Shown here: positions 12,939 to 21,164 of the stretch, piece by piece
Layout of the letters: each line of letters begins with the position of its first letter
Position numbering within the stretch: position 1 is the first letter of the stretch
Virus record (IMG/VR): IMGVR_UViG_3300033571_006541
Span: 1-25,549 of that record
Direction: 5' to 3' (one strand)
Source: a virus
Length of the DNA: 25,549 nucleotides
Translations under genes and position numbers: made by a program
The notes under the pieces: generated by a model
What the model saw: the letters and a program-made list of their open reading frames with translations, nothing else
Told to the model about the DNA's origin: nothing
The model's database searches: none

Positions 12939-13093
12939 CAGCCCTCATCAGTGCCAGGCTCGTAGCGGAAGTCTATGCACCGCCTGAACGCTAGCCGATT
13001 GTGTTTCTGACACCAGAGCTTGCACCCTACCGATTCAGGGTTTTGCAGCACAGCCCCGGTGTCAGCACTCCAATAACAAGAACGACAAGTCAT
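12938..13093 (-). CDS. Small Cys-rich protein, putative zinc-binding
   Basis: 51 residues, MTCRSCYWSADTGAVLQNPE and so on. C3, C6, C24, C28 and H31 (CRSC and CKLWCQKH) form a plausible zinc site. ATG 13093 overlaps the methyltransferase stop as ATGA, and its own stop overlaps the terminase start by one base (TGATG). It fills the gap of about 150 bases between the two large genes exactly, which strongly suggests a real gene. Function is unknown; small zinc-finger proteins next to terminase can be packaging accessories. Confidence 0.65.
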   Translation of the reverse strand: MTCRSCYWSADTGAVLQNPESVGCKLWCQKHNRLAFRRCIDFRYEPGTDEG

Positions 13094-13863
13094 TTACGGA
13101 TGATCTGCACCGACTTGCCCTGTGGCTCGTCCTTCGCCTCCAGCCGGAAGCTGGCATCCTTGTGGATCGCCACTACCGTGTTGCCAAACACTTCCAGGTT
13201 ATACCCAAACCCGGTCAGCAGGGACTTGATCTCTTCGGCAGTCTCCTGATACCAGTCAAACTGCGTCCAGGACTCATACACAATCGCAGGGAATTTATTG
13301 ACCTCAAGGAATCCAGCAGCACCCTTCAATACCTGCAACTCGGAACCCTCTACATCCATCTTGACCAGCCTCACCGGGGCACTGAATCCAAGTTTATCCA
13401 GAGTGATGCAGTCCACCACCTCTTTCTTGCCGCCAGCCTTAGCCTCTTGGCTGTTCGTCCTGACCATATTACTCATGCTCCAAGCCCCCACGTTCGGGTT
13501 TGTAGCGTAGTCAGGCATGTCAATCTCAACACTGCCATTAACGTTGCTTACAGCCTCATTGTAAGCATGAACGTTATGGCAATGATTCAAGGCCACGTTC
13601 CCACACAACTGCTGGAACACCACCCGCTGCGGCTCCCAGGCATGAACCTCATACTGCGGATACAGCTTTGCCAGCGGCACCGTTACCGTGCCCATGTTGG
13701 CGCCAATGTCCAGCACTACCCCACTCTCATACCCACCCGCAATCATGGCGCACAGATTGACCACCTCCAATTCGTAATGCCCATGCAGCGCCAGGTTCGC
13801 ACTAATCAAATCATTCCCCGGCCGCACCATAAACCTACCGTGTCTTGTTTCTAAAATGTTCAT
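13090..13863 (-). CDS. FkbM-family SAM-dependent methyltransferase
   Basis: 257 residues from ATG 13863 (MNILETRHGRFMV); this start has GGAG five bases upstream, whereas an in-frame GTG at 13881 has none. SAM-binding motif I is VLDIGANMGTVTVPLA, with the ribose-binding acidic residue in VHAWEPQ. The FkbM signature VRLVKMDVEGSELQVLKGA follows in the middle. Family members O-methylate sugars or other small groups; the substrate here is unknown. It overlaps the upstream gene by 29 bases and is within the late operon, so it might modify a virion component, lipopolysaccharide or a nucleotide. Overall length is normal for the family. Confidence 0.85.
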   Translation of the reverse strand: MNILETRHGRFMVRPGNDLISANLALHGHYELEVVNLCAMIAGGYESGVVLDIGANMGTVTVPLAKLYPQYEVHAWEPQRVVFQQLCGNVALNHCHNVHAYNEAVSNVNGSVEIDMPDYATNPNVGAWSMSNMVRTNSQEAKAGGKKEVVDCITLDKLGFSAPVRLVKMDVEGSELQVLKGAAGFLEVNKFPAIVYESWTQFDWYQETAEEIKSLLTGFGYNLEVFGNTVVAIHKDASFRLEAKDEPQGKSVQIIRK

Positions 13864-14044
13864 ACGCTCTCCCGTCCTCACTCATTGATAAATACTTCAA
13901 CTGCTCTCTATACAACCCATACCAGGGGTCAGCAGGGTCAGCCTTCTCCAGCAACTCAATCGTCTGGAAAACCACCTCCCTGCCTCGCCTTATCGCAAAG
14001 TCAGCGTAATGCTTCCCCCACTTCTTCGGATCAACCCAATCCAC
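13835..14044 (-). CDS. Small hypothetical protein before FkbM methyltransferase
   Basis: 69 residues, starting at GTG 14044 directly after the previous stop (TGA then GTG), with GTGGAG just upstream. The sequence (VDPKKWGKHYADFAIRRGRE, then VVFQTIELLEKADPADPWYG) is helical and charged. The last 29 bases overlap the methyltransferase in another frame. Adjacent methyltransferase and shared translation suggest a helper, but there is no recognised domain. A shorter form from ATG 13886 would have only 16 residues and is unlikely. Confidence 0.6.
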   Translation of the reverse strand: MDWVDPKKWGKHYADFAIRRGREVVFQTIELLEKADPADPWYGLYREQLKYLSMSEDGRAYEHFRNKTR

Positions 14045-17608: not shown

Positions 17609-17938
17609 ATGAAATGTCCGGCCTGTTACTCCAAGATTGGCCCCTTTGACCGTAGCTGCCCCTGTGGATGGGGGGCGGCTGTGGTCAATGCCCCGCCGTC
17701 GCATGGCTGCGGCTGGCCCGACTGCCAGGCGCCTGCGCTTGCCAGTGTGACCGCATCAGGTAAACGCGTAAATTTGTGCAGGGTTCACTACTCTGAATTT
17801 TTCGGGCGCCAGGCGCTCGCGGGCGCACGCGCGAAGGGGCTGACTAGCCCCGATGATTGCAGAGAATGGCTCAAGGCTAACCGATTGAAAGCAATGAAGT
17901 TTCCTAACCCTGAGGTATCCGATGAAACTGCCCCTTAG
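17609..17938 (+). CDS. Protein with two zinc-binding Cys motifs
   Basis: 109 residues from ATG 17609 (MKCPACYSKIGPFDRSCPCG); a GTG at 17597 is possible but has a weaker site. C3, C6, C17 and C19 look like a zinc ribbon. C34, C39, C57 and H60 (CGWPDCQAPALAS and CRVHY) form a second cluster of the small C-x4-C / C-x2-H type often found in phage proteins. The C-terminal half is helical and charged. It overlaps the following signal-peptide gene by 17 bases. Nucleic-acid binding is plausible but not proven. Confidence 0.7.
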   Translation: MKCPACYSKIGPFDRSCPCGWGAAVVNAPPSHGCGWPDCQAPALASVTASGKRVNLCRVHYSEFFGRQALAGARAKGLTSPDDCREWLKANRLKAMKFPNPEVSDETAP

Positions 17939-18260
17939 TGCTGCCCCTTTTGCCCTAGCTGCTACCCTGCTGGCTGGCCCTGCTCACGCGCAGATGGAAT
18001 GGATCGCCCGCGCCAAAAATAACGGCGGCGGGCTGATTGTCCTGCTGGCTGCGGTAGATACCTGCATCAACGGGCGCCGGATGTACACATCATCGCCCAC
18101 CGGCCGATCACAGTGGGGCTGCTGGATCGCCACCGACAACCATATCATCGTAGCTTGGGACGGCCAGAGCCATGTCACAACCTACGACTACGCTGGATGG
18201 GAACTGAACCCGGCCCGAGAGAAGCCCAACGCGCAGCCTAACCGAGGCCATAATTTTTAG
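17922..18260 (+). CDS. Secreted/periplasmic small protein
   Basis: 112 residues. The first 23 (MKLPLSAAPFALAATLLAGP then AHA) form a signal peptide with a likely cleavage site after AHA. The mature part contains two Cys residues (VDTCINGRRM and WGCWIATDN), which could form a disulfide in the periplasm, and many aromatic residues (HIIVAWDGQSHVTTYDYAGW). Phage-encoded exported early proteins may exclude superinfecting phages; that is a guess. It is the last gene before the non-coding block at 18261. Confidence 0.7.
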   Translation: MKLPLSAAPFALAATLLAGPAHAQMEWIARAKNNGGGLIVLLAAVDTCINGRRMYTSSPTGRSQWGCWIATDNHIIVAWDGQSHVTTYDYAGWELNPAREKPNAQPNRGHNF

Positions 18261-18289
18261 TTGACAAAAAAATCGGATAGACAAATAAT
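18261..18289 (+). promoter_or_regulatory. Near-consensus sigma-70 promoter
   Basis: A perfect -35 box TTGACA (18261-18266), a 17-base spacer and a -10 box AATAAT (18284-18289, five of six matches to TATAAT). It begins immediately after the stop of the preceding gene. A start of transcription near 18296 is expected, just ahead of the structured RNA described next. It is the best promoter match in the window on either strand. Confidence 0.8.
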
Positions 18290-18295
18290 CGCAGC

Positions 18296-18442
18296 GCCTG
18301 TGCAAAAGACAGGTCGCTCTGTGGTGGGGCGTGAGTCAGCATGAACCCTTACGCATTGGGTTTCGGTCTTGATGTGCGACTTTGCTGACTTGCGCCCATC
18401 ATCACCGCGACCGTAAACCCAAGCCGTAAGGGTTTTTCTTTT
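18296..18442 (+). ncRNA. Candidate small structured RNA (about 147 nt)
   Basis: It is framed by a strong promoter and an intrinsic terminator with no plus-strand gene between. Visible pairings include CCTGT (18297-18301 region) with ACAGG, GGGCGTGAGTCAGC (18327-18340) with GCTGACTTGCGCCC (18384-18397, 14 pairs including two G-U), and AACCCTTACG (18344-18353) with CGTAAGGGTT (18425-18434). The last two sets cannot all form at once, which suggests two alternative folds. I do not recognise an Rfam family. Function may be regulation of a host or phage mRNA, or an immunity RNA in the style of C4. Confidence 0.6.
18415..18442 (+). terminator. Intrinsic terminator of the candidate RNA
   Basis: AAACCC (18415-18420) pairs with GGGTTT (18430-18435) across the 9-base loop AAGCCGTAA, followed by TTCTTTT to 18442. 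A longer stem can form with upstream bases (18344-18353 with 18425-18434), which would strengthen or compete with the short one. Termination in plus direction is expected here; some read-through must occur for the downstream early genes if they have no other promoter. Confidence 0.7.
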
Positions 18443-18654
18443 GCTCAGGCTTGTAGCAAACCGGGGGTGAGGCCCGCCCCTCGCGTAGGTTGAGGCGACC
18501 AAGCGAATAGACGCTGCATTAAACGGCATGGTGTCCGTTGCTGGAATCTTCCAGCGTTGCAACCGGAAACGAGAGCCTCCCTCAATTTTTGAGGAACCCC
18601 ACCTTATATACGTGGGGCCGTTGACCATGTAGCTGATGTAGGAGATAAGGGAAT
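18443..18654 (+). promoter_or_regulatory. Structured non-coding leader before DUF5710-like gene
   Basis: No gene was found on the plus strand. Several perfect hairpins occur: GGGGTG/CGCCCC (18464-18480), AACGG/CCGTT (18522-18539), GCTGGAA/TTCCAGC nearly back to back (18540-18555 region), CCTCAA/TTGAGG (18580-18594) and CCCCAC/GTGGGG (18597-18617). The last is 38 bases before ATG 18655. The density of hairpins suggests a second RNA domain or a regulated leader. A minus-strand open frame covers the same interval; see findings. Confidence 0.55.
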
Positions 18655-18858
18655 ATGGCAAAGGTGTTTGTCAATGTGAGCTTCCAGAGCAAAGAATCAG
18701 CGAAGCGTGCAGGTGCCAAGTGGGATTGGGTTTCGAAGTCCTGGTATTTTGAAGATGTAGTCCCACCAAGTTTCCAGACTAAGCACAGTCAATCTTTCGA
18801 GCAGCGGTTAGCAGAAGCCAAGCGCAAGCACCAGGAAAGCAAGTTATGCAAAGCATGA
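18655..18858 (+). CDS. DUF5710-like small protein
   Basis: 67 residues. FVNVSFQSKESAKRAGAKWD, then WVSKSWYFEDVVPP, is the typical DUF5710 pattern (beta strand, KxxAKxxGAKWD, W-Y), a small domain found alone or attached to DNA primases and nucleic-acid enzymes. The C-terminal helix is Lys/Gln-rich (FEQRLAEAKRKHQESK). It starts at ATG 18655 and overlaps the next gene by 13 bases. The exact role is unknown; DNA or nucleotide binding is possible. Confidence 0.75.
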   Translation: MAKVFVNVSFQSKESAKRAGAKWDWVSKSWYFEDVVPPSFQTKHSQSFEQRLAEAKRKHQESKLCKA

Positions 18859-19100
18859 GGCAAGAGGGGCAGCAACGTAAGGTGCTGGACTCAGTGAAAA
18901 GTGGCAATGTTACTTGCAATGAAATAGCTGAGGCCACCAAGATTGAGAAGTCCCAGGTTTACAATCATCTGAGGCGGTTGGTAACGCAAGGTGTAATCAA
19001 GACGCAACGCGGTAACGGATGGACAAAGTATTACCCTGTTGGTGAATCGCCAGTCTTGTTGGAAAGGTTTTGGAAAAGCCCGATTGTTGTTAAGAAATAG
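18846..19100 (+). CDS. Winged-helix-turn-helix transcription regulator
   Basis: 84 residues from ATG 18846 (AGGA lies 9 bases upstream); an ATGA-overlap start at 18855 would give 81 residues. The pattern KVLDSVKSGNVTCNEIAEAT, then KIEKSQVYNHLRRLVTQGVI and KTQRGNGWTKYYPV is a winged-helix domain of the MarR/IclR-like kind: helix-turn-helix plus a beta wing. It likely controls early or late promoters, for example through the palindromes at 14588-14679. No ligand-binding domain is present. Confidence 0.8.
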   Translation: MQSMRQEGQQRKVLDSVKSGNVTCNEIAEATKIEKSQVYNHLRRLVTQGVIKTQRGNGWTKYYPVGESPVLLERFWKSPIVVKK

Positions 19101-20270: not shown

Positions 20271-21164
20271 ATGAGCGACTTTACCCCTGAAGTCAGAAAC
20301 AAAGCACTGTGGTCTGGTGACGCCCGCCGCTTCGTAGAAGGCAGAGGCGGCGAGGTTTACGCCGAGAAGCTAGGTCTAAAGGAAATGGATGACCTGAGCG
20401 ATGTTGAGTCTGTGCAGATGGGCTTGGTGATGCAAGAACCGATCATGCGCGAATATGCCAGGCGCAACGGCATCGAGTTCAAGGACGCAGACTACGCACT
20501 CTACCATCCCCGCGAGTCATTCCTTGCCAGCCACTTTGACTACATCAGCGCCGATGGCCGCACCCTGTATGAGGTGAAGAACCTGGGAGTTCATCAGCGC
20601 AAGAAGTATGGCGATGACGGCAGCAACCAGGTTGACATTGGCTATCGCGTGCAATGCTTGCATGAGGCTACCGTGCATCAGATCGAGTCTGTGGTGCTGG
20701 TGGTCTGCTTTGGCGGGCAGGAAATTGTAGGCTACCCGCAGACATTCGGCGCCGATATGATGGATATCCATATCAAGGAAATGGCCGAGTTTTGGGGCCG
20801 CATCCAGGCCCGCAGCTTCGATCCCGATACGATGGGTGACGCTGCCAAGCTGGTGTATCGGCAGGACAACGGCACCAACCTGATCGCCACTCAAGACCTT
20901 GAGCACGACTGCATGAAGCTGGCGGCAATCAAGGCGCAGATATCGGCACTGGAGAAGGATGAAGCCACCATGCAAAAGCGTATCCAAGGCTACATGATGG
21001 AGTCCAGCCAGCTAGTCAGCGTGGACGGCACTGTGTTGGCTACCTGGAAAACATCTAAATCCAGTAAAAAGTTTTCGCAGGAGTTGTTTAAGAATGCAAT
21101 GCCTGATATATTTACCAAGTTCGTTGTAGAACAACCCGGCTCCCGCCGGTTCCTAGTGAAGTAG
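20271..21164 (+). CDS. YqaJ/lambda-type recombination exonuclease
   Basis: 297 residues, starting at ATG 20271 after AGAAAGGG. The PD-(D/E)XK core is seen as GLVMQEPIMREYARRNG (conserved E56), SHFDYISADG with D90, and EVK at 101-103. QCLHEATVHQIESVVLVVCF follows the core. The later coiled region (KLAAIKAQISALEKDEATM) is typical of YqaJ proteins. This enzyme should resect duplex DNA 5' to 3' to expose single strands for the annealing protein encoded next. Together they form a lambda Red-like recombination pair used in replication and genome maturation. Confidence 0.88.
   Translation: MSDFTPEVRNKALWSGDARRFVEGRGGEVYAEKLGLKEMDDLSDVESVQMGLVMQEPIMREYARRNGIEFKDADYALYHPRESFLASHFDYISADGRTLYEVKNLGVHQRKKYGDDGSNQVDIGYRVQCLHEATVHQIESVVLVVCFGGQEIVGYPQTFGADMMDIHIKEMAEFWGRIQARSFDPDTMGDAAKLVYRQDNGTNLIATQDLEHDCMKLAAIKAQISALEKDEATMQKRIQGYMMESSQLVSVDGTVLATWKTSKSSKKFSQELFKNAMPDIFTKFVVEQPGSRRFLVK

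What the first reader, a model, noticed from the sequence alone, without database searches (positions are those of the whole stretch)
18261..18442. Promoter, structured RNA and terminator cassette within the early operon
Directly after a signal-peptide gene there is TTGACA, a 17-base spacer and AATAAT, then about 147 bases with no plus-strand gene, ending in an intrinsic terminator (AAACCC/GGGTTT then TTCTTTT). Phage early operons seldom devote such space to nothing. I think this is a phage small RNA gene, and it does not match any RNA family I recognise.
Basis: partly seen in the sequence, partly recalled or inferred. Interest (0 to 1): 0.82.

Follow-up and report, generated by a model that had tools for sequence, protein, structure and literature searches.

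The report
New knotted small RNA of phages
This stretch encodes a roughly 147-letter small RNA with its own start and stop signals; it folds into an intricate knotted shape, occurs in dozens of mostly unrelated uncultivated phages, matches no known RNA family and probably helps the phage early in infection, though its job has not been tested.

Summary
About 74 viral records carry the element (54 distinct copies), most with a sigma-70-type promoter at a near-constant place, a 5' hairpin, a 135-158-nt body and a U-tract. Six helices are supported by covariation: P1, P2, P5, P8 (10+8 pairs plus a short extension) and two crossing helices, P3 and '6', which make a multiple pseudoknot. Rfam has no match. 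The element is patchy and is shuffled between unrelated phages. P3 is hypervariable: its sequence is replaced, pairing kept, even where a flank is 95-97% identical. It is usually followed directly by a second structured RNA of changing class, sometimes Betaproteobacteria-1. Most likely it is a stand-alone, early, trans-acting RNA that binds a host or phage factor; the partner is unknown.

The parts
18261..18289 (+). sigma-70-type promoter, TTGACA-17-AATAAT
   Evidence: 11 of 12 matches; conserved in position across 52 copies
18296..18442 (+). RNA1, the structured small RNA (start inferred ~7 nt after the -10, end = last U of the tract)
   Evidence: model R1 hit 18293-18439, 92.9 bits, E 1.3e-19; the alignment A2 behind R1 did not include the window
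18296..18314 (+). P1, 5' hairpin (18296-18301 with 18309-18314)
   Evidence: permutation z -9.0; window parse
18315..18331 (+). P2 hairpin (18315-18319 with 18327-18331); its loop holds strand 6a
   Evidence: z -11.2
18321..18405 (+). helix 6, pseudoknot: P2 loop 18321-18326 with 18400-18405
   Evidence: z -10.6, not part of the search model
18333..18391 (+). helix P3, pseudoknot, hypervariable: 18333-18340 with 18384-18391 in the P5 loop
   Evidence: z -20.0, not part of the search model
18371..18400 (+). P5 hairpin (18371-18378 with 18392-18400); its loop holds strand 3b
   Evidence: z -9.5
18344..18434 (+). P8 long-range helix: 18344-18368 with 18409-18434 (23 pairs in the window, 2x2 internal loop and one bulge)
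   Evidence: z -17.2; 98-99.6% of cells paired, 16 of 18 pairs change on both sides
18433..18442 (+). U-tract TTTTTCTTTT, probable 3' end
   Evidence: sequence; a U-run next to P8b is kept in the copies
18459..18640 (+). second conserved element (RNA2) directly downstream; partly structured, function unknown
   Evidence: conserved in L005, L004, L009, L003, L006 and, in blocks, L084, L114, L143; 2 of 18 predicted pairs change on both sides
17922..18260 (+). upstream signal-peptide ORF (no family)
   Evidence: relatives sit directly upstream of RNA1 in L003, L006, L009, L092, L095
18655..18858 (+). downstream DUF5710 ORF
   Evidence: PF18974 E 2.1e-10

Best explanation
RNA1 is an independent phage gene for a small structured RNA. 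Shown by sequence comparison: a conserved sigma-70-type promoter precedes it, a 5' hairpin opens it, six helices including two crossing ones fold it, and a U-tract follows the last helix. Inferred: host RNA polymerase makes it early in infection, it ends at the U-tract, and it folds as two side-by-side helical stacks, P8 (about 22 pairs) beside 6-P5/P2-P3 (about 20 pairs), because strand 3a leads straight into the foot of P8 and strand 6b into its top. Inferred with less certainty: it works in trans as a folded object that binds a protein or RNA of the host or phage and so helps takeover or counter-defence. The conserved core (P1 loop, P8 with its internal loop, GGU/ACC) would be the shared working surface, and the hypervariable P3 an allele-specific part. 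My odds: real structured RNA gene 0.96; stand-alone and acting in trans 0.72; takeover or counter-defence as the purpose about 0.45.
For: Covariation and permutation tests; P3 and helix 6 were not in the model used to align, yet own partners beat swapped ones strongly. Promoter at a fixed place in most copies. One strong copy per locus. In L127 RNA1 lies antisense inside a minus-strand operon, with a DNA-methylase gene converging on it about 190 nt downstream and no RNA2 recognised, so no evident downstream gene is there to control. In L122, L134 and L155 there is no RNA2 either. Patchy and mobile: absent from phages that share the window's ArdC and exonuclease genes, yet 94% identical between phages with no similarity in 1.5 kb of flank (L111/L091, L134/L117). 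No variable strand has a special partner elsewhere in its own locus.
Against: No transcript or phenotype is known. In most copies RNA2 starts within about 15 nt of the U-tract with no obvious promoter of its own, which suggests read-through and leaves room for a cis role. In many phages RNA1 heads a rightward early operon. Purpose is inferred only from early position and mobility.
Confidence: 0.7

Rival explanations
1. A cis-acting leader: RNA1 is the start of the early transcript and controls, by refolding between P8 and local hairpins or by acting on the polymerase as HK022 put RNA does, whether transcription passes the U-tract into RNA2 and the early genes.
For: RNA2 follows within about 15 nt in most copies; RNA1 often lies at the head of an early operon or between divergent operons; both the P8 arms and the local hairpins can form on energy grounds.
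Against: The local hairpins show no covariation (z -2.1 and -0.1; 1 pair changed on both sides against 2.2 in shuffles), so a conserved switch is not supported. L127 has no evident downstream + gene. Downstream content is not conserved.
Confidence: 0.14
2. RNA1 and RNA2 are two domains of one longer RNA; the U-tract is a linker and RNA1 is the constant 5' domain.
For: Close adjacency in most copies; RNA2 classes are themselves structured (class of L112/L124: 22 of 49 pairs change on both sides; Betaproteobacteria-1 in L107, L128, L149).
Against: RNA2 is missing in L122, L134, L155 and apparently L127, and its class changes freely while RNA1 stays; the terminator-like U-tract is kept.
Confidence: 0.1
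3. A DNA element (origin, recombination site or palindromic mobile element) whose inverted repeats merely look like RNA stems.
For: Mobile, many inverted repeats, near recombination genes.
Against: Promoter always on the same side, G-U pairs accepted (for example 17 U-G cells at one P8 pair), U-tract kept, crossing helices of mutually consistent length.
Confidence: 0.03
4. A short coding gene on either strand.
For: A mechanical minus-strand ORF covers the region in the window.
Against: Copies are 135-158 nt long in all classes modulo 3; 34 of 52 have no open + frame and 21 of 52 no open - frame.
Confidence: 0.01

Closest known systems
HK022 put RNA (nascent antitermination RNA; structure paper PMC9378689, abstract seen)
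   Same: Phage RNA directly behind an early promoter, acts as a folded RNA without a phage protein
   Different: From my knowledge put is a shorter, two-hairpin cis element; RNA1 is ~147 nt, has six helices with two crossing, ends in its own U-tract, and in L127 has no evident downstream gene
phi29 packaging RNA (pRNA; Rfam RF00044 from memory)
   Same: Phage-encoded structured RNA of similar size; from my knowledge its loops pair between molecules and vary while staying complementary, which resembles P3
   Different: No Rfam match; no sign of a phi29-type packaging system: the terminase here is an ordinary large subunit; intermolecular pairing of RNA1 is untested
P1/P4-type C4 and CI immunity RNAs (from my knowledge)
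   Same: Phage antisense-like RNAs from early regions whose variable strands set specificity
   Different: Those pair with their own downstream leader; RNA1's variable strands have no better partner in their own flanks than in foreign ones
Betaproteobacteria-1 RNA (Rfam RF02932)
   Same: Lies next to RNA1 as RNA2 in L107, L128, L149
   Different: A different RNA; RNA1 itself does not match it

Membership tests
Any Rfam 15 family | Score at or above the curated gathering score | tested here: not met
   Window none; 17 RNA1 loci gave only Betaproteobacteria-1, in RNA2; permissive scans gave only hits far below gathering scores or none
Intrinsic terminator with a local hairpin | Local hairpin kept by covariation in homologues, then a U-tract | tested here: not met
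   U-tract kept, but the local hairpin shows no covariation (z -0.1) and 84% of cells pair against 98-99.6% in P8
HK022 put-like antitermination element | Cis position ahead of terminators and genes it must help express | tested here: inconclusive
   Many copies head an early operon, but the L127 copy lies antisense in a minus-strand operon
HK022 put-like antitermination element | Suppresses termination by host polymerase | not testable with these tools
   needs transcription assays
C4/CI immunity antisense RNA | Complementary target in the phage's own early leader | tested here: not met
   own against swapped duplex energies z between -1.6 and 1.0 over about 300-nt flanks; 10-mers elsewhere in the locus not in excess
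phi29 pRNA | Covariance-model match | tested here: not met
phi29 pRNA | Intermolecular loop pairing into a ring | not testable with these tools
   P3 could be intra- or intermolecular; sequence cannot tell
Phage small structured RNA (general kind) | Own promoter, own 3' signal, conserved structure, no coding capacity | tested here: met
   expression itself untested

The most novel reading that the evidence does not exclude
P3 is an identity tag: its two strands pair between molecules (or with an allele-matched partner), so that each phage's RNA1 assembles only with its own kind, and selection for being unlike co-infecting phages drives its rapid, pairing-preserving turnover. RNA1 would then be a self-recognising RNA assembly used for takeover or for excluding rivals.
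Probability: 0.2. Interest if true: 0.9.

Novelty: new variant of a known kind. Interest (0 to 1): 0.74.

Why it matters
Phages are known to carry small RNAs, but few have a fold of this complexity, and this one is spread over many unrelated uncultivated phages while absent from Rfam and, within the limits of these searches, from isolate phages, plasmids and bacterial species genomes. A constant core joined to a hypervariable yet always self-complementary helix is unusual and points to recognition or conflict between genetic elements. The association with changing second RNAs, one a known orphan (Betaproteobacteria-1), gives a handle on that orphan too.

Tried and rejected
Single long hairpin of the minimum-energy fold: its middle part (P2b with P5b) gains nothing from own against swapped partners (z 0.1). 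Local terminator hairpin and local hairpin in P8a as conserved elements: no covariation. miR-586 and miR-661 hits: far below gathering scores, most likely caused by the palindrome. P3 strands as antisense guides to own flanks: no signal. P8 extension GGU/ACC: 95% of cells pair but no change on both sides, so only consistent, not proven. Pairing of P1's 3' strand with GCGACCTG: weak (z -4.9) and confounded by shared sequence with P1. Minus-strand CM hits are echoes of the palindromic arms. Genome-contig hits L157-L163 are chance matches of the pattern. INPHARED blastn and plasmids: none. A search for the signal-peptide protein in viral contigs gave nothing. The Weinberg 2017 survey is not held, so its text could not be checked.

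Full report
Check of the observation. The promoter TTGACA-17-AATAAT at 18261-18289 begins on the base after the stop of ORF 17922-18260, and AAACCC/GGGTTT plus TTTTTCTTTT ends near 18442. Alone, the promoter scan is not beyond chance and the terminator is not flagged; the fold of 18291-18443 is more stable than all shuffles (z -4.1).

Homologues. The exonuclease downstream (20271-21164) led to 80 IMG/VR loci; five hold the element, one (L005) 87% identical at DNA level over 367 nt although the neighbouring proteins share only about 44-68%. Two conserved motifs then found it in many further contigs, and a third motif from the 3' half found three more. A covariance model R1, built from 21 copies without the window, scores the window at 92.9 bits, E 1.3e-19, and finds 73 loci, 71 distinct records. 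With the three later ones this makes about 74 records. Because two pattern scans fixed part of P1 or P8a and one fixed part of P8b, the conservation of those exact letters is partly by selection; conservation of their partners is not.

Structure. On 52 distinct copies 95.6% of cells in P1, P2, P8 and P5 pair, 30 of 33 pairs change on both sides, there are 208 double-change cells against 43.8 in shuffles (0 of 500), and sliding by one column drops pairing to about 50%. That alignment was fitted to this structure, so I also compared each copy's own strand pair with swapped ones: P1 z -9.0, P2 -11.2, P5 -9.5, P8 -17.2, and, for the two crossing helices that the model did not contain, helix 6 -10.6 and P3 -20.0. 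The rival continuous hairpin (0.1), the local hairpin in P8a (-2.1) and the local terminator hairpin (-0.1) are not supported. In the window all six helices can form together except for one shared base (18400, in P5 and 6). Order along the RNA: P1, P2 with 6a in its loop, 3a, P8a, P5 with 3b in its loop, 6b, P8b, U-tract. Inference: P8 (23 pairs) and the stack 6, P5, P3 (about 20) are of matching length and connect at both ends, so a two-stack bundle is feasible.

Promoter and coding. In 52 copies the best sigma-70 score averages 8.9 against 7.4 in shuffles, and 30 share one exact distance to the RNA. The RNA is not coding.

Distribution. RNA1 matches no Rfam model, is not found by blastn in INPHARED phages or plasmids, nor, by one exact pattern, as a true copy in 84,980 bacterial and archaeal species genomes. 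The nearest named phages by terminase, MW202753 and MW202825 from Manatee Spring, lack it in the stretches read. It is absent from the other exonuclease relatives, including loci that hold both ArdC and exonuclease with all between, such as L014, L038 and L041. Near-identical copies sit in unrelated flanks (L111/L091 94%, L134/L117 94%). So it appears to move between phages as a unit.

Hypervariable P3. In L101/L102 the upstream flank is 97% identical and the core 91%, but the P3 strand segments only 62% and 43%; in L141/L127 and L134/L122 one flank is 95% identical and the P3 segments about 44-64%. Pairing is kept, and foreign partners pair far worse. Since the core is also less alike than the flanks, exchange of whole alleles by recombination is likely, and P3 differs more than the core between alleles. 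The strands have no special partner elsewhere in the locus.

Neighbourhood. Genes around RNA1 differ widely; from my reading of the sequences they include primase-helicases, ParB-like proteins, recombination proteins, exonucleases and methylases. RNA2 follows in most copies, in at least five sequence classes, one being Betaproteobacteria-1, another covarying strongly. L127 lacks a recognisable RNA2 and any convincing + strand gene behind RNA1.

Verdict. A real, so far unlisted phage RNA gene; its mechanism beyond 'folded RNA, probably acting in trans' is inference. A 2025 review of phage-derived small RNAs (PMC12197685, searched by terms) showed nothing resembling it in the passages returned.

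Noticed in passing
window 18459-18640: A second conserved element (RNA2) directly behind RNA1; in other phages this slot holds different structured RNAs, at least one covarying strongly and unmatched in Rfam.
   Followed up: partly
L107 2545-2664, L128 3695-3816, L149 177-297: Betaproteobacteria-1 RNA (RF02932) sits directly behind RNA1, suggesting a phage role for that orphan family.
   Followed up: partly
L101/L102, L141/L127, L134/L122: P3 strands replaced, pairing kept, while one flank is 95-97% identical.
   Followed up: yes
window 18655-18858; L005, L113, L117, L130: A small DUF5710-like ORF recurs behind RNA2 in otherwise different phages (Pfam tested only for the window; the others by eye).
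   Followed up: partly
L122, L134, L155: An ORF (MPERIDVNFYPFHIGDYL...) could start right at the RNA1 U-tract, with GGGG of P8b as a possible ribosome site.
   Followed up: no
window 17922-18260: Family-less signal-peptide protein whose relatives sit directly upstream of RNA1 also in phages with otherwise different neighbours (L092, L095).
   Followed up: no
window 18846-19100: Small winged-helix protein that matches Csa3/CasR-type regulators through its HTH (PADLOC, E about 1e-7; TrmB-like in Pfam).
   Followed up: no
window 13090-13881: FkbM-type methyltransferase (PF05050) between the late and early gene blocks.
   Followed up: no
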